From NCBI GenBank assembly GCA_027488905.1, contig JAIYAT010000034.1:124001-188000 (forward strand): a stretch of DNA of 64,000 nt. The letters are read 5' to 3'. The notes beneath the pieces are model-generated. The model did not search any database, was not told where the DNA came from, and saw only the letters and a program-made list of their open reading frames with translations. Positions 24,647 through 30,134 of this stretch are shown here, piece by piece. Source of the stretch: Bacteroidota bacterium (lineage in GTDB: Bacteria; Bacteroidota; Bacteroidia; UKL13-3). The number at the start of each line of letters is the position of its first letter. Positions within the stretch are counted from its first letter, which is position 1. The position numbers were made by a program, and so were the translations under genes.

Positions 24647-24693
24647 ATTATTCCCGAAAAATGAAAGTTGAACTTTCATATTTCGGGAATAAT
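24647..24693. repeat. Long palindrome, upstream copy
   Basis: Arms of 23 bases (24647-24669 and 24671-24693) around a single central G, with one mismatch. The centre is GAAAGTTGAACTTTC, framed by CCCGAAA and TTTCGGG. It nearly repeats the palindrome at 25897-25945. It lies immediately before the -7 box and start of the ATPase gene, so it could serve as an operator, a terminal repeat, or both. Confidence 0.85.
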
Positions 24694-24695
24694 AA

Positions 24696-24703
24696 TAACT
24701 TTG
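24696..24703 (+). promoter_or_regulatory. -7 box TAACTTTG of the AAA_14 ATPase gene
   Basis: TAACTTTG fits TAnnTTTG and ends four bases before the ATG at 24708, implying a leaderless or nearly leaderless mRNA. The upstream palindrome occupies where the -33 element would lie. Confidence 0.5.
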
Positions 24704-24707
24704 TAGT

Positions 24708-25889
24708 ATGATAACTAGAGCTTTGCAAAAAAAGATAGAACAACTTTTAAAAGAGTTTCCTGCTGTAGGAATCATAGGTCCAAGGCAATGTGGTAAAACA
24801 ACTGTTGCCCAACTTATACAAAAGAAGACTGCTTTAAAAACAGGAGTTTATTTTGATTTGGAGAGCCCACAAGACCTCAGAAAATTTGAGAATCCAGAAT
24901 TATTTTTAACTGCCCATCAAGACAACCAAGTTATTATAGATGAGGTTCAAAGAATGCCAACACTTTTTGCGTTGCTGCGTTCTTTAATTGATAAAAAGCG
25001 TAAGTCAGGCAGATTTATCTTATTGGGTTCTGCAAGTCCGGAGTTTATTCATGGGAGTTCAGAAACATTAGCAGGAAGAATATTTTATGTAGAGGCCACC
25101 CCATTTTTGCTAACAGAACTGCCTAATAAACCTAAAATATTAGAAAAACATTGGTTTAGGGGAGGGTTTCCGAATGCTTGGCAAGCCAAAACCGATGATG
25201 CCTTTACAAGATGGATGAATGGATTTGCAAGAACTTTTATTGAGCGCGACTTAAATCAACTTTTCGGTATTAGTTTTTCGCCTCAACTCATGTTTAAGTT
25301 ATGGCGCATGTTGGCACATCACCATGGAGGCATTTGGAACGCACAATCTTTTTCAAAAGGATTGGATGTTAGCTCGATTACTGTAAATCGTTACCTCGAT
25401 TATTTGCAAGGCGCATTTATGGTGAGGAAATTAATGCCTTACCATAAAAACACTTCCAAAAGATTGGTTAAAAGCCCAAAGGTTTACATAAGAGACAGCG
25501 GATTGCTACACTACCTGCTCGATATTCATCATATGAAAAACTTGCTTTATCATCCCATGTTAGGCTATTCTTGGGAAGGTTATGTCATTGAACAAATTAT
25601 TTCACAACTACCCGATTCGGTTCAACCCTACTATTATAGAACACATGATGGTGCAGAGGTTGACCTAATCTTGGTAAAAGGAATTAAACCAATTGCCAGC
25701 ATAGAAATAAAATATTCAGAGCAACCTTCGCTTAGCAGAGGTTTTACTGAAAGCATTAAAGAATTAGAAACCAAATATAATTATTTCATTATCCAAAGTT
25801 CTGATGCAGAATGGTCCATAAATAAAAATATTTCTGCCATTGGATTAAGAGAATTTCTAGAGGTAAAACTTCCTAAAATTTGTAAATAA
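24708..25889 (+). CDS. AAA_14/DUF4143 family ATPase
   Basis: A 393-residue cytoplasmic protein. Walker A is GPRQCGKTT (24-32) and Walker B is QVIIDEVQRMP, typical of AAA_14. A winged-helix-like middle (HGGIWNAQSFSKGLDVSSIT) and a C-terminal DUF4143 domain follow. DUF4143 contains a PD-(D/E)XK-like core: HDGAEVDLILVKG, then SIEIKYS. Members are widespread, patchy and often transferred horizontally; their cellular role is not established. The gene stands alone, leaderless, and is framed by two almost identical long palindromes at 24647-24693 and 25897-25945. That suggests a discrete 1.3-kb unit. It contains the motif variant GGTTCAACCC at 25619. Confidence 0.85.
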   Translation: MITRALQKKIEQLLKEFPAVGIIGPRQCGKTTVAQLIQKKTALKTGVYFDLESPQDLRKFENPELFLTAHQDNQVIIDEVQRMPTLFALLRSLIDKKRKSGRFILLGSASPEFIHGSSETLAGRIFYVEATPFLLTELPNKPKILEKHWFRGGFPNAWQAKTDDAFTRWMNGFARTFIERDLNQLFGISFSPQLMFKLWRMLAHHHGGIWNAQSFSKGLDVSSITVNRYLDYLQGAFMVRKLMPYHKNTSKRLVKSPKVYIRDSGLLHYLLDIHHMKNLLYHPMLGYSWEGYVIEQIISQLPDSVQPYYYRTHDGAEVDLILVKGIKPIASIEIKYSEQPSLSRGFTESIKELETKYNYFIIQSSDAEWSINKNISAIGLREFLEVKLPKICK

Positions 25890-25896
25890 TTTTAAA

Positions 25897-25945
25897 AATT
25901 AACCCCGAAATATGAAAGTTGAACTTTCATATTTCGGGGTTAATT
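25897..25945. repeat. Long perfect palindrome, downstream copy
   Basis: Arms of 24 bases (25897-25920 and 25922-25945), perfectly complementary around one central G. The inner sequence matches the upstream palindrome from AACTTTCATATTTCGGG outward. It begins seven bases after the ATPase stop. It lacks the one-sided T-run of an ordinary terminator, although a bidirectional terminator is possible because metH ends nearby on the other strand. Confidence 0.88.
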
Positions 25946-25978: not shown

Positions 25979-28645
25979 CTACTCATAACCAAGGTTTGGA
26001 GCTAACCATTTTTCTACATATTCAATAGATTCACCTTTGCGCTTAGCATATTCTTCTACTTGGTCTTTTTGAATTTTACCCACTGCAAAATACTTGCTCT
26101 CTGGATGTGCAAAATAAAATCCGCTAACCGCTGCCGTTGGATACATGGCAAAATTTTCGGTAAGGGTTATTCCTACCTTATCTTCCACCTTTAGCAAATC
26201 AAACAACTTACGCTTCTCGGTATGGTCTGGGCAAGCAGGATATCCTGGCGCTGGACGAATGCTATCATACTTTTCTCGAATGATATCATCGTTGCTCAAC
26301 TGCTCATCTTTGGCAAAACCCCATAATTCTTTACGTACCAATTCGTGCATTTTCTCTGCCATTGCCTCAGCCAACCTATCTGCCACAGCCTTTATCATAA
26401 TGCTGTTATAATCGTCATGATCTTTTTCAAAGGCTTCAATCAATGGCTCAATGCCAATGCCTGCCGTTACAGCAAAAAAGCCAATATGGTCTTTCTTACC
26501 TGTCTCTGCTGGTGCCACATAATCTGCCAAACAATGGTAGGGTTGGTCGGCAGCTTTTTCATTTTGTTGGCGCAAAAAGCTAAAGGTTTGTGTGCCATTT
26601 TCGGTTTGAACCAACACATCGTCGCCCTGCGCGTTTGCTTCATAAAATCCTACCACTGCTTTGGCAGTAAGCAGTTTTTCTGCAATTACTTTATCCAACA
26701 AATTATTCGCATCCTTAAACAATTTTGTAGCCTCAACTCCTACTACCTTATCATCTAAAATAGCTGGGTATCTTCCGGCTAATTCCCATGTTAAAAAGAA
26801 AGGCGTCCAATCAATGCGTTCACGTAACTTCTCTAATGGAAAATCTTCAAACACCTTGGTTCCCAAAAAACCAGGTGTAACCAAGTTGTCAAAACTTAGT
26901 TTGGGTTTATGAGCCCTTGCCTTTTCAAGTGTTACAAAATTTTTGTCCTTGCGTCTGTTTTTATAATCAATCCTAAATTGTTCGTACTCGGCTTTATACT
27001 TTGCAGTAGCAGGGGCAATTAAATCTGGACTGATAAAATTTTGCGCTACAGGTACACTCTTACTGGCATCTAATACGTGAATAACCGGACCGCTATACAC
27101 TGGGTCTATCTTAACAGCAGTATGCGCTCTAGAAGTGGTAGCGCCACCAATCAACAATGGTATTTTCATACCAAGGCGTTCCATCTCTTTGGCCACATAC
27201 ACCATTTCGTCTAAGCTTGGCGTAATTAAACCACTTAAACCTATCACTTGCACATTTTCGCGGATAGCAGCTTCAAGTATTTTCTCTGCTGGCACCATTA
27301 CGCCAATGTCTATGATTTCAAAGTTGTTACAAGCCAATACCACACCCACGATATTCTTTCCAATATCATGCACATCACCTTTTACCGTAGCCATAAGGAT
27401 TTTACCTTGAGAGGTGCTTTTGTCTCCAGACTTGCGCTTTTCTTCTTCCATATATGGCATTAGATAGGCAACAGCTTTTTTCATTACCCTTGCGCTCTTT
27501 ACCACTTGCGGAAGAAACATTTTTCCTGAACCAAACAAATCTCCAACAATATTCATACCCGCCATCAGCGGACCTTCAATTACCTCTAACGGTCGGGCAA
27601 ATTGCTTACGCGCTTCTTCGGTATCCTCATCAATAAATTCAACAATTCCTTTTACCAAAGCATAACTCAATCTTTCCGCCACTGGTGCGTTGCGCCACTC
27701 AAGGTCGATTACCTTTTCTTTTCCTTTACCCTTTACCTTTTCTGCATATTCTAACAAGCGCTCGGTGGCATCATCTTTTCTATCCAATAAAACATCTTCT
27801 ACATACTCCAAAAGGTCTTTGTCTATTTGGTCGTATACTTCAAGTTGACTCGGATTTACGATTCCCATAGTCATGCCATTTTGGATGCCATGGTACAAGA
27901 AAGCTGAGTGCATGGCTTCACGCACTTTGTCGTTGCCCCTAAAAGAGAAAGACACATTACTTACACCACCGCTAATTTTGGCGCCAGGTAGATTTTCTAC
28001 AATCCACTTGCTCCCTCTAAAATAGTCTATGGCATTTCTGCGATGCTCCTCCATGCCTGTTGCTACTGGAAAAATATTTGGGTCAAAAATGATATCGCCT
28101 GCAGGAAACTTAACAGTTTCTGTTAGTATTTTATATGCCCGCTCTGCAATTTCAATACGTCTTTCAAAGTTGTCTGCCTGACCAACCTCATCAAAAAGCA
28201 TCACAATTACAGCAGCGCCAAAACGCTTGATGGTTCTAGCTTGCTGAATAAACTCGGCTTCGCCACCTTTGAGAGAAATAGAATTAACTACACATTTTCC
28301 TTGCACGCATTTTAAACCTGCTTCAATAATTTCCCATTTAGAGGAATCTATCATCACGGGTACTCGAGAAATATCAGGCTCGGAGGCAATAAGGTTAAGG
28401 AAACGCGTCATAGCTTCTACCCCATCAATCATTCCCTCGTCCATGTTAATATCGATGATTTGTGCTCCACCCTCTACTTGCTCGCGTGCAACGGCAAGAG
28501 CAGCATCAAAATTACCTTCTTTGATGAGGCGCAAAAACATTTTAGACCCAGTAACATTGGTTCGCTCACCAACATTAACAAAATTAGTTTCTTTAGTAAT
28601 TACGAGTGGCTCTAGGCCGCTTAGTTTTAGTGTAAAATCGTTCAT
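25979..28645 (-). CDS. metH: Cobalamin-dependent methionine synthase, C-terminal chain
   Basis: An 888-residue protein holding the pterin-binding, cobalamin-binding and reactivation domains of MetH. It transfers a methyl group from methyltetrahydrofolate through B12 to homocysteine bound by the partner chain. [17 protein letters not shown] opens the folate domain. GDVHDIGKN (424-431, histidine 426) is the lower-ligand motif for cobalamin. [16 protein letters not shown] near the end binds SAM for reactivation. I chose the ATG at 28645 ([10 protein letters not shown]); seven extra codons upstream come from the GGTCTATGG-type repeat. Split MetH is common in Bacteroidota, so the division need not be damage. 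The homocysteine-binding chain is at 29092-30096. Confidence 0.95.
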
Positions 28646-28650
28646 TGTTA

Positions 28651-28685
28651 GTTGTCCATAGACCATGGTCGATAGACCATAGCCA
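28651..28685. repeat. GGTCTATGG-type repeat before the metH C-chain
   Basis: This 35-bp stretch matches 30100-30134 at 31 positions in the same orientation. It contains the hairpin ATGGTC-GATA-GACCAT (28665-28680). It ends five bases upstream of the metH C-chain start codon, so it forms that gene's 5' leader. Confidence 0.75.
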
Positions 28686-28695
28686 TTTTACTTTA

Positions 28696-29043
28696 TTATA
28701 ATTTTGACTTTAATGATTGTTGCATTTTTATGAGTGTTTCGCATTCATTGTAAATATTTTTGAAATCCTCATCTGAAATAATTTTCCTAGTTTGTGCAAT
28801 ATAAATACAACACACTACTTCAATACATGACCTAATTGAAAAACTTAAAAACCTAGCAAACTCTGGATTACTCTGCCCTTGAGACCCTTCTCCAATATTT
28901 AAAACAATTGAATCAGATGCCCTTTTAATTTGAGAGCTTAAAATGTATAACTCTTCCTTTGGAAACTTTTTCGTAACCGCGTCAACCAATTCAACCAGTT
29001 GCATTGATTTTTTCCAAACTTCTAAATTCTCGAATTTAAACAT
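28696..29043 (-). CDS. Four-helix bundle protein (23S rRNA intervening-sequence type)
   Basis: A 115-residue all-helical protein of the TIGR02436/IVP family: FENLEVWKKSMQLVELV at the start, then QIKRASDSIVLNIGEGSQGQ, the family's most conserved part, and FARFLSFSIRSCIEVV. Relatives were first described in 23S rRNA intervening sequences and now appear throughout Bacteroidota as lone genes flanked by short repeats; they form pentamers or bundles of unknown function. Here the gene sits between the two metH chains, with GGTCTATGG-type repeats on both sides. It therefore looks like a small mobile passenger placed into the operon. It keeps the operon's orientation and an intact frame. Confidence 0.85.
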   Translation of the reverse strand: MFKFENLEVWKKSMQLVELVDAVTKKFPKEELYILSSQIKRASDSIVLNIGEGSQGQSNPEFARFLSFSIRSCIEVVCCIYIAQTRKIISDEDFKNIYNECETLIKMQQSLKSKL

Positions 29044-29078
29044 CTCTTGCTTATCTTTTTCAACTTATTCCATTTTGC

Positions 29079-29108
29079 TATGGTCTATGGTCTATCGACC
29101 ATTGACTA
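29079..29108. repeat. GGTCTATGG-type repeat after the metH N-chain
   Basis: Contains two direct CTATGGT units and the stem ATGGTC-TATC-GACCAT. The last codons and the TAG of the metH N-chain (ending LLVNGR) lie inside it, so the repeat supplies that gene's stop codon. Confidence 0.7.
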
Positions 29109-30096
29109 ACAGCTTTCTCGGTTCATACCTCCCTGCCATTTCAGCAATTGCCTTGATATGATCTGGAGTAGTGCCGCAGCAACCGCCAAGGATGTTAACT
29201 AAACCTTCTTGGCAGAAGACTTCTACTTGCGCTGCCATTTGCGCAGGAGATTCGTCGTATTGGCCAAATTCATTAGGCAAACCCGCATTTGGATAAGCAC
29301 TTACAAAGAATGGGGCATTGTTATTTAATACTTGCAAGTATGGACGCAAAGCGCTTGCACCCAAAGCGCAGTTTAAACCTATGCTTAACAAAGGCATGTG
29401 TTGCATGCTTATCAAAAATGCTTCGGTGGTTTGACCCGAGAGAGTTCTGCCCGAAGCGTCGGTGATGGTTCCAGAAATCATGATGGGATAGGTTTTTCCA
29501 ATTTCCTCAAATAACTCATCTACTGCAAACAAGGCGGCTTTTGCATTAAGAGTATCAAAAATGGTTTCAATTAAAATAATGTCTACTCCACCTTCAATAA
29601 GTTTACGCGCTTGGTGCTTATAAGCAGCTACCAATTCATCAAATAAAATGGCTCGGTAACCAGGGTCGTTTACATCCGGACTAATAGAAAGGGTTCTGTT
29701 GGTTGGGCCCATCGCACCTGCCACAAAGCGAGGCTTATTTGGATTAAGTGCTGTAACTTCATCAGCTACTTCTCGGGCAATTTTGGCACTTTCAAAGTTA
29801 ATCATATCTACCCATTCCTGACCCAAATCATAATCGTTTTGGGCAATAGTGGTACCGCTGAAGGTATTGGTTTCAATGATATCCGCACCTGCGTTAAAAT
29901 ATTGGCGGTGGATGGCCTTGATAACATCTGGACGAGTAAAGCTCAATAAGTCGTTATTGCCTTTGAGGGGCTTTGAATGGCTCTTCAAAGCTTCATTTCT
30001 AAAATCTTCCTCCTCTAGGTTATACCGTTGTATCATGGTGCCCATGGCTCCATCGAGGATGAGAATGCGTTGGTTTAGTATTTCGTGTAAGTTCAT
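29092..30096 (-). CDS. metH: Methionine synthase homocysteine-binding chain (MetH N-terminal part)
   Basis: A 334-residue homocysteine S-methyltransferase domain protein. [20 protein letters not shown] starts the barrel. IGLNCALGA and [15 protein letters not shown] carry the three cysteines that bind zinc and activate homocysteine. It works with the larger chain at 25979-28645. I chose the ATG at 30096 (MNLHEILNQ), because the longer frame begins inside the upstream repeat. Its stop codon is supplied by another repeat copy, so the C-terminal few residues may differ from relatives. It follows the SAM-I riboswitch and should be shut off when SAM is plentiful. Confidence 0.92.
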
Positions 30097-30099
30097 ATT

Positions 30100-30134
30100 G
30101 TTGTCGATAGTCCATAGTCGATAGACCATAGCAA
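30100..30134. repeat. GGTCTATGG-type repeat before the metH N-chain
   Basis: Matches 28651-28685 at 31 of 35 positions in the same orientation and ends three bases from the metH N-chain start codon. A shorter related block lies at 30154-30181 (ATGGACTATGGGCCATGG followed by TCTATGGAC). Confidence 0.75.

What the first reader, a model, noticed from the sequence alone, without database searches (positions are those of the whole stretch)
24647..25945. A lone AAA_14/DUF4143 ATPase gene framed by two near-identical ~47-49-bp palindromes
The upstream palindrome (23-base arms, one mismatch) and the downstream one (24-base arms, perfect) share their inner 17 bases per arm but differ in the outer bases: GGGAATAAT upstream, GGGGTTAATT downstream. 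The unit between outer ends is 1299 bp and holds one gene with a box overlapping the first palindrome. I see no target duplication and no transposase. It may be a small transposable unit moved in trans, or an autoregulated gene with a repeated operator that also ends transcription. DUF4143 proteins have a PD-(D/E)XK-like core and unexplained patchy spread.
Basis: partly seen in the sequence, partly recalled or inferred. Interest (0 to 1): 0.62.

Follow-up and report, generated by a model that had tools for sequence, protein, structure and literature searches.

The report
ATPase-nuclease that reads its own promoter
A very common but unexplained bacterial ATPase-nuclease, often listed as a candidate virus-defence protein, appears to recognise a matching palindrome at its own promoter using a readable amino-acid-to-base code; here a second copy of the palindrome sits just after the gene.

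Summary
Window 24647-24693 and 25897-25945 are the only strong palindromes found in the window and flank one AAA_14/DUF4143 gene. They are probably not transposon ends. Each is a gene-specific form of a 37-bp dyad found at the promoters of this family: 146 of 164 clade-A and 44 of 63 clade-B genes carry it, in Bacteroidota and, by record titles, many other phyla. It overlaps apparently leaderless promoters. Variable dyad bases covary with two protein sites: the start of a winged-helix recognition helix (residues 222-224) and a loop beside the PD-(D/E)XK active site (313-314). In clade A residue 314 predicts base 3 (Asp C, Asn/Gln A, His G, small T) in 125 of 129 tips, and 26 of 28 inferred class changes went with the predicted base. 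Clade B points to the same residues, with the same inner but a different outer code. Three of five base predictions held clearly at 29 held-out loci. So the protein very probably binds its own palindrome and autoregulates. The downstream copy looks like a second operator; recombination between copies deletes the gene. The family is PADLOC's PDC-S01, a widespread untested defence candidate. Binding is inferred; repression and cleavage are untested.

The parts
24647..24693 (.). Upstream palindrome (23-base arms, one mismatch)
24652..24688 (.). 37-bp family dyad (operator) inside the upstream palindrome: TCCCGAAAAATGAAAGTTGAACTTTCATATTTCGGGA, starting at -56 from the ATG
   Evidence: family position
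24696..24703 (+). Bacteroidota-type -7 box TAACTTTG (TANNTTTG), starting at -12, so the transcript is probably leaderless
   Evidence: consensus recalled
24708..25889 (+). AAA+ ATPase / winged helix / PD-(D/E)XK protein (AAA_14-DUF4143, PADLOC PDC-S01), 393 aa
24759..25118 (+). AAA_14 domain (residues 18-137); Walker A K30, Walker B D78-E79 and R124
25371..25379 (+). Codons of residues 222-224, start of the predicted winged-helix recognition helix; covary with dyad bases 12-14
25242..25718 (+). DUF4143 match (residues 179-337: winged helix plus nuclease core)
25644..25649 (+). Codons of residues 313-314, loop before the active-site strand; covary with outer dyad bases (3 and 6 in clade A, 3-5 in clade B)
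25656..25712 (+). Active-site segment of the PD-(D/E)XK domain: E317, D319, E333, K335 (E290 lies at 25575-25577)
25897..25945 (.). Downstream palindrome (24-base perfect arms)
25903..25939 (.). Second 37-bp dyad: CCCCGAAATATGAAAGTTGAACTTTCATATTTCGGGG, 13 nt after the stop codon
22987..24510 (-). asnS, divergent neighbour; marks the conserved site of the unit in the genus
   Evidence: named by recall from its sequence
25979..28666 (-). metH C-terminal part, convergent neighbour
   Evidence: named by recall from its sequence

Best explanation
The gene encodes an AAA+ ATPase with a winged helix and a PD-(D/E)XK nuclease domain, which binds, presumably as a dimer, a 37-bp dyad specific to itself. 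The winged helix reads inner bases (about 11-14) and a loop beside the nuclease active site reads outer bases (about 3-6). The upstream dyad lies over the core promoter of an apparently leaderless gene, so binding should shut RNA polymerase out and make the gene self-limiting. In this clade a second dyad just after the stop codon is another binding site, perhaps for looping or cooperative binding. Because the two copies are direct repeats, recombination between them can delete the gene cleanly and leave one dyad. Shown by sequence: the dyad, its place, the covariation, and remnants at sites that lack the gene. Inferred: binding, dimerisation, repression, looping. Not shown: whether the nuclease cuts the dyad or another target. 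My guess is that the bound form is held inactive and is released by a trigger such as invading DNA.
For: Dyad above 99% of 1111 control windows in 146 of 164 clade-A genes and above the control maximum in 123; spacer of 27 nt in 68 loci against 1-5 for each of twelve other spacers. Clade B: 44 of 63. Promoter overlap: TA..TTTG at -12/-13 in 29 of 43 Bacteroidia loci of the -54 to -60 register against 9 of 2643 control windows; TTGAC in the dyad centre in 7 of 16 mixed-phylum loci of the -48 to -53 register, 6 with TA...T 15-19 nt on; SD-like motifs in 0 of 127. Clade-A covariation peaks at residues 313/314 and 213/222/223/224. Residue 314: D with C 42 of 42, N/Q with A 18 of 18, H with G 6 of 6, A with T 39 of 39 (symmetric pairs). 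Inferred class changes with the predicted base: 26 of 28 for residue 314 (1 against, 1 undetermined), 19 of 26 for 224 (3 against, 4 undetermined), 12 of 22 for 313 (4 against, 6 undetermined). Replicate in clade B: K224 with G at base 13 29 of 29, D222/K224 with G at base 14 27 of 27, V223 with T at base 12 20 of 20. Held-out half-sites: base 6 39 of 44, base 13 43 of 48, base 14 45 of 48. 0 of 57 paralogue pairs within genomes share all nine compared bases; 76 pairs of proteins at least 75% identical differ at a median of 0. Bases 3, 4, 5 and 15 differ between upstream and downstream copies in 0, 1, 0 and 0 of 31 loci.
Against: No binding, expression or cleavage data. 18 of 164 clade-A and 19 of 63 clade-B genes lack a recognisable dyad; in four distant DUF4143 genes of this genome the best symmetric 37-mers pair only 13, 8, 12 and 10 of 18 (no control run). 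The outer code is not the same in clade B: Thr314 goes with T in clade A but, with Lys313, with G in clade B, and base 6 there does not peak at residue 313. In the window itself four of five coded bases fit, but Ser223 usually goes with T at base 12 and here stands with G. Held-out base 12 was no better than the commonest base (30 of 54 against 29), base 3 modestly better (45 of 54 against 39), and one gene entered twice contradicts base 3. Bases 11 and 12, inferred to be read, differ between copies in 11 and 9 of 31 twin loci. Near-invariant nuclease residues are not expected of a pure repressor.
Confidence: 0.8

Rival explanations
1. A minimal mobile element: the palindromes are its ends and the protein is its own transposase or homing nuclease, cutting at the dyads and moving the gene.
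For: Twin dyads lie tightly at the gene's ends in this clade (-2 to 13 nt after the stop); nuclease and ATPase residues are near-invariant; a nuclease-domain loop covaries with the dyad; three sites without the gene keep one dyad; two genus members (G310, G337) have neither gene nor dyad at asnS; relatives are widespread and occur on 384 plasmid records.
Against: Ten close copies in the genus share one site, and two groups in other genera share flanks among themselves. Five sites without the gene carry remnants, so they are losses. Most members have no downstream dyad (38 of 164 scored, some weak). Both recognition sites stay intact around the gene, unlike a homing nuclease target.
Confidence: 0.12
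2. The palindromes act as DNA or RNA hairpins (cruciform, terminator, processing site) and their sequence does not matter.
For: Symmetry extends about 3 bp beyond the 37-bp dyad; in this locus the outer bases differ symmetrically between the copies, and at bases 1-2 9 of 24 differing pairs are compensatory; the downstream copy lies between convergent genes.
Against: Of all 124 pairs that differ between upstream and downstream copies only 12 are compensatory; bases 5, 7 and 8 are nearly fixed in clade A; base identities follow protein residues. The upstream copy lies before the inferred start of transcription.
Confidence: 0.05
3. The dyad is bound by an unrelated host regulator and the covariation reflects shared ancestry only.
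For: The mutual information was only partly corrected for relatedness (weights, APC). When base 3 and residue 314 were reconstructed separately, 15 branches carried both changes, out of 28 residue and 27 base changes.
Against: The dyad geometry occurs across many phyla with different promoter elements; 26 of 28 inferred switches of residue 314 show the predicted base; clade B gives the same residues; paralogues in one genome have different dyads.
Confidence: 0.03

Closest known systems
PADLOC PDC-S01 (phage defence candidate, AAA_14-DUF4143)
   Same: The window protein matches its models (best 2.1e-86). [quoted passage not shown]
   Different: The passages I read give no DNA target, operator or regulation. 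This copy sits between housekeeping genes.
Self-regulating restriction/TA regulators (C proteins, antitoxins; recalled)
   Same: A DNA-binding protein acts on a palindromic operator in its own promoter.
   Different: There the regulator is a small separate protein; here the ATPase-nuclease itself appears to read the operator, partly with its nuclease domain.
AAV Rep-type initiators (recalled; listing only)
   Same: Nuclease plus ATPase that binds palindromic ends and its own promoter.
   Different: HUH nuclease and viral replication origin (recalled); I saw no sign of replication or transposition here.
Archaeal ATPases PAB2304 (2qen) and SSO1545 (2fna)
   Same: Closest solved folds over residues 1-272 and 1-271 (Z 16.5 and 15.5, rmsd 3.0 and 3.1 over 248 residues).
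   Different: 18% identity, and the match does not cover the nuclease domain.
McrC, Hjc, Can2, type II restriction enzymes
   Same: The C-terminal domain aligns with their PD-(D/E)XK fold (McrC 6ut7 Z 8.7, rmsd 2.4 over 104; Can2 8.0-8.2; Hjc 4tkd 7.5; BsaWI 7.1).
   Different: Low identity and middling Z; Foldseek alone found nothing at E <= 0.001 (best 6.3e-3, McrBC).
RAYT/REP palindrome systems (recalled; listing)
   Same: A gene with palindromes near its ends.
   Different: REPs are dispersed in many copies; this palindrome occurs only twice, at its own gene.

Membership tests
AAA_14 / DUF4143 (Pfam) | Both domain models over their cut-offs | tested here: met
   144.8 against 28.1 bits and 87.1 against 27 bits
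PADLOC PDC-S01 | Match to the family models | tested here: met
   seven PDC-S01 models, best 2.1e-86
PADLOC PDC-S01 | Anti-phage activity | not testable with these tools
   No experiment; validation said to be pending for most PDCs
PD-(D/E)XK nucleases | Fold and E...E-x-D...E-x-K residues | tested here: met
   Fold (Z 6-9 with many PD-(D/E)XK entries; the top row, 2czr at 10.9, is a TBP-interacting protein); residues in 173-175 of 175 clade-A rows and 43 of 44 clade-B rows
Autoregulated operator systems | Dyad over the gene's own promoter | tested here: met
Autoregulated operator systems | The gene's own protein binds the dyad | tested here: inconclusive
   Strong covariation evidence but no binding assay
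Transposable element | Different insertion sites in close relatives | tested here: not met
   ten close copies in the genus share one site; two groups in other genera share flanks
Transposable element | Pre-insertion empty site without the ends | tested here: inconclusive
   five sites are losses with remnants; G310 and G337 have neither gene nor dyad at asnS but other neighbours, so they cannot be compared
Homing endonuclease | The gene interrupts its own recognition site | tested here: not met
   Two intact dyads flank the gene
RAYT/REP | Dispersed palindromes in the genome | tested here: not met
   two sites only
STAND / archaeal AAA+-wHTH ATPases | Shared AAA+-winged-helix fold | tested here: inconclusive
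   2qen and 2fna first, NLR/CED-4 next; a shared fold is not membership

The most novel reading that the evidence does not exclude
DUF4143/PDC-S01 proteins are a very large set of mutually orthogonal, ATP-dependent, sequence-specific nucleases whose recognition site is the dyad at their own promoter. The nuclease loop that reads the outer bases places the active site on that dyad, so they nick or cut their own operator, or incoming copies of it, when the ATPase is triggered. Their specificity can be read from about six residues.
Probability: 0.3. Interest if true: 0.92.

Novelty: new variant of a known kind. Interest (0 to 1): 0.78.

Why it matters
PDC-S01 is counted among the commonest candidate defence genes (29,494 in Bacteria and 9,986 in Archaea in PMC12988326, passages read); I found no reported target for it. 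This work gives it a DNA site, a residue-to-base code with independent support, and a likely mode of control, all testable with a gel shift and two point mutants. It also suggests that a nuclease domain takes part in operator reading, which ties regulation to the effector itself. The code would help predict the operator of uncharacterised members and tell intact from decayed copies.

Tried and rejected
Transposable unit: looked for other insertion sites and for empty sites; found remnants at five of the sites that lack the gene. Two further sites (G310, G337) have neither gene nor dyad and stay unexplained. Hairpin model: rejected because copies differ mostly by one-arm changes. Broad regulon: the own-genome search found no other site. 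One dyad without a clade-A gene (L243/L258) lies about 1.5 kb from a clade-B gene. Two viral-contig matches to the strict dyad lie inside the same coding frame and look like chance. Rfam was not searched, because the upstream dyad lies before the inferred transcript. Sequence search of solved structures gave no full-length relative. Tblastn of phage records gave 12 distant matches, not followed.

Literature: 'DUF4143' is in one paper (one section of it read). The eleven 'AAA_14' papers look unrelated from the listing. 'PF13635/PF13173/COG1373' gave eight papers, listing only. Searches listed no report of this operator. Passages of two further papers were read. This covers open-licence PMC papers only.

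Analysis caveats and dropped rows: the dyad matrix was trained on the loci it then scored, and control windows come from those loci. Clade labels come from the better of two tblastn queries. Covariation used only loci with a dyad: 146 of 164 and 44 of 63. The twin comparison kept 31 of 38 scored downstream loci; seven were dropped by hand or by position. The held-out test used 8 of 36 viral loci (the most similar; a ninth was a duplicate), 14 of 384 plasmid records chosen for variety, and 7 pattern hits. The paralogue groups were listed by hand. The regular expression had a wrong spacer, so it printed no 'box' lines; its palindrome and hit lines stand. The 'summed' row is an artefact of the correction and was not used. 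One search had the wrong orientation for L035 and L037; one search replaces it.

Full report
WHAT IS THERE. The two palindromes are real and are the only strong ones found in the window. Between them lies one gene, 24708-25889 (+), coding for a 393-aa protein with AAA_14 and DUF4143 domains; it matches PADLOC's PDC-S01 models. The palindrome was found nowhere else in the genome. The genome has six DUF4143 genes. One of them, 33% identical, also has twin palindromes of quite different sequence, the first hint that the palindrome belongs to the gene.

RELATIVES. I collected 209 loci with this gene from unnamed class, family and own genomes and from 80 contigs with titles from many phyla, the best 80 of 533; 201 proteins are distinct. 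Upstream palindromes are significant in 142 of 201 (41 of 80 in the titled set), against 5 of 193, 6 of 188 and 4 of 201 control stretches; downstream ones in 45 of 200. In clade A they resolve into a 37-bp dyad, CCNNGNAAAT-(17)-ATTTNCNNGG. A spacer of 27 between CCNNG and CNNGG occurs in 68 of 164 loci, each of twelve other spacers in 1-5. With a matrix, 146 of 164 exceed 99% of 1111 control windows and 123 exceed all of them. Clade B keeps the same geometry with other letters in 44 of 63. In an independent check a degenerate dyad pattern matched in 13 of 395 genomes, at 21 distinct sites by my count of the listing; the backwards control matched at one place. Twenty of the 21 lie beside a DUF4143 gene or a fragment of one.

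PROMOTER POSITION. Dyads start mainly at -37, -49 to -51 or -56 to -58 from the start codon (94 of 146). In the -54 to -60 register the Bacteroidota -7 box TANNTTTG (recalled consensus) sits at -12/-13 in 29 of 43 Bacteroidia loci, against 9 of 2643 control windows. In the -34 to -41 register it is seen in 6 of 21 Bacteroidia and 0 of 35 mixed loci. In the -48 to -53 register, among 16 mixed-phylum loci, TTGAC lies in the dyad centre in 7, and 6 of these have TA...T 15-19 nt on. No Shine-Dalgarno-like motif appears in 127 loci. So the dyad covers or abuts core elements of an apparently leaderless promoter, best seen in two of three registers. The window fits: TAACTTTG at 24696-24703, dyad at 24652-24688.

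THE CODE. In clade A, mutual information between symmetric dyad letters and protein columns (146 proteins, effective number 118) peaks at few residues: 314 for bases 3 and (weakly) 4, 313 for base 6, 213 and 223 for base 11, 223 for base 12, 224 and 222 for bases 13-14; bases 10, 15 and 16 give no such peak. Residues 223-235 form a predicted helix, the recognition helix of a winged helix by my reading. Residues 313-314 sit in the loop before E317-x-D319. The pairings make chemical sense: residue 314, Asp with C 42 of 42, Asn/Gln with A 18 of 18, His with G 6 of 6, Ala with T 39 of 39; residue 224, Lys with G 15 of 15 and Pro with A 46 of 48; residue 223, His with G 16 of 16 and Val with T 9 of 9 (symmetric pairs only). 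The window fits at bases 3, 6, 13 and 14, not at 12. On a tree built without these columns residue 314 changed class 28 times by parsimony: 26 changes go with the predicted base, one does not, one is undetermined; reconstructed separately, 15 branches carry both a residue and a base change. For residue 224 it is 19 of 26 (3 against, 4 undetermined), for 313 12 of 22 (4 against, 6 undetermined). Clade B, analysed separately, puts 314 first for base 3, 313 for bases 4 and 5, 223 for base 12, and 224 and 222 for base 14; base 6 does not peak at 313. The inner code is the same: K224 with G 29 of 29, N224 with G 9 of 9 and P224 with A 4 of 4 at base 13; D222/K224 with G 27 of 27 at base 14; V223 with T 20 of 20. 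The outer code differs: Lys313-Thr314 goes with GG, where clade A pairs Thr314 with T.

HELD-OUT TEST. The code from the 146 loci was applied to 29 new loci (viral contigs, named plasmids, pattern hits; two entries are one gene and two others share one dyad). 27 had a dyad, found with the tested bases blanked in the matrix (symmetry still counted). Half-sites right: base 6 39 of 44, base 13 43 of 48, base 14 45 of 48, base 3 45 of 54, base 12 30 of 54; always guessing the commonest base gives 9, 28, 33, 39 and 29. Bases 6, 13 and 14 are clear wins, base 3 a modest one because most held-out loci share one letter, and base 12 fails.

SPECIFICITY. In 21 genomes with two or more dyads, none of 57 paralogue pairs shares all nine compared bases (median 4 differences, range 1-8), while 76 pairs of proteins at least 75% identical differ at a median of 0. 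This is what mutually insulated self-regulators would show.

THE SECOND COPY. A downstream dyad was scored in 38 of 164 clade-A loci (2 of 164 internal control windows). In the window's clade it begins -2 to 13 nt after the stop; some of the weaker of the 38 are probably chance. Other members have two dyads in tandem upstream, 51-53 bp apart in eleven of the 23 loci with more than one. In 31 twin loci the copies differ at 124 pairs, of which 12 are compensatory; bases 3, 4, 5, 6, 13, 14 and 15 differ in 0, 1, 0, 3, 5, 4 and 0 loci, but bases 11 and 12 in 11 and 9. So the copies mostly keep what the protein should read.

GAIN AND LOSS. Ten close copies in the genus (76-100% identical) share one site: nine beside asnS, the tenth, on a short contig, by its flank. 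Five species lack the gene there but keep traces: G327, sister of the window's genome on the asnS tree, keeps one dyad whose left half matches the upstream copy and right half the downstream copy; G288 and G330 also keep one dyad; G335 keeps a match to residues 362-391 and the downstream dyad; G125 keeps part of one arm. The asnS tree leaves the relevant group unresolved, but by eye the flanks of G288 resemble G318's and those of G335 resemble G333's, so several of these losses look independent. Direct-repeat recombination between the copies explains the three clean ones. G310 and G337 have neither gene nor dyad at asnS. I saw no fresh insertion.

THE ENZYME. The AlphaFold model is confident (mean pLDDT 93.3). 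Residues 1-272 match archaeal ATPases 2qen (Z 16.5) and 2fna (Z 15.5), then NLR/CED-4 proteins. The C-terminal domain alone (mean pLDDT 84.6, weaker at its start) aligns with PD-(D/E)XK nucleases: McrC, Can2, Hjc, restriction enzymes, NucC (Z about 6-9); the top row, 2czr at Z 10.9, is a TBP-interacting protein, and Foldseek alone had no match at E <= 0.001. K30, R124, E317 and K335 are invariant in 175 clade-A rows (146 plus the 29 held-out entries); E290, D319 and E333 are kept in 174, 173 and 173. A pure repressor would not need them, so a catalytic function besides autoregulation is likely. In T. thermophilus HB27 a DUF4143 gene (TT_P0211) rose 6.6-fold with plasmid DNA in an Argonaute-positive strain (PMC4406477, one section read), which would fit an inducible gene but is indirect.

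VERDICT. Most likely an ATPase-nuclease that binds and represses its own promoter through a private dyad, with a second dyad after the gene in this clade. Binding is well supported by sequence alone; repression is inferred from position; the job of the nuclease is open. It works like a self-regulating operator system; membership in a defence system rests on HMM match only.

Noticed in passing
window 25979-30129: metH seems split into two reading frames (25979-28666 and 29092-30129, both -) with a 115-aa frame (28696-29043) between that resembles four-helix-bundle/23S-intervening proteins (labels recalled, not searched).
   Followed up: no
L265 1823-2087 (G310): Three further copies of the gene's dyad follow the stop codon in an 88-nt tandem repeat whose dyad centres differ.
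   Followed up: partly
L258 1602-1638 (G001): A clade-A dyad without a clade-A gene, next to a repressor-like frame (by eye) and about 1.5 kb upstream of a clade-B DUF4143 gene.
   Followed up: partly
L259 1544-1951 (G437): A decayed DUF4143 C-terminal fragment followed by a dyad that is still largely symmetric.
   Followed up: partly
L080 (G114:C62:62979-66910): Two DUF4143 genes, one nearer to each clade, lie head to tail on the same strand (hits).
   Followed up: no
own genome, L033: A second DUF4143 gene with its own perfect twin palindromes of different sequence.
   Followed up: yes
L361 1001-2179 (Spirosoma linguale pSLIN02): This member is annotated as an ArsR-family transcriptional regulator, although it is a relative of the window protein with a perfect dyad.
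   Followed up: partly
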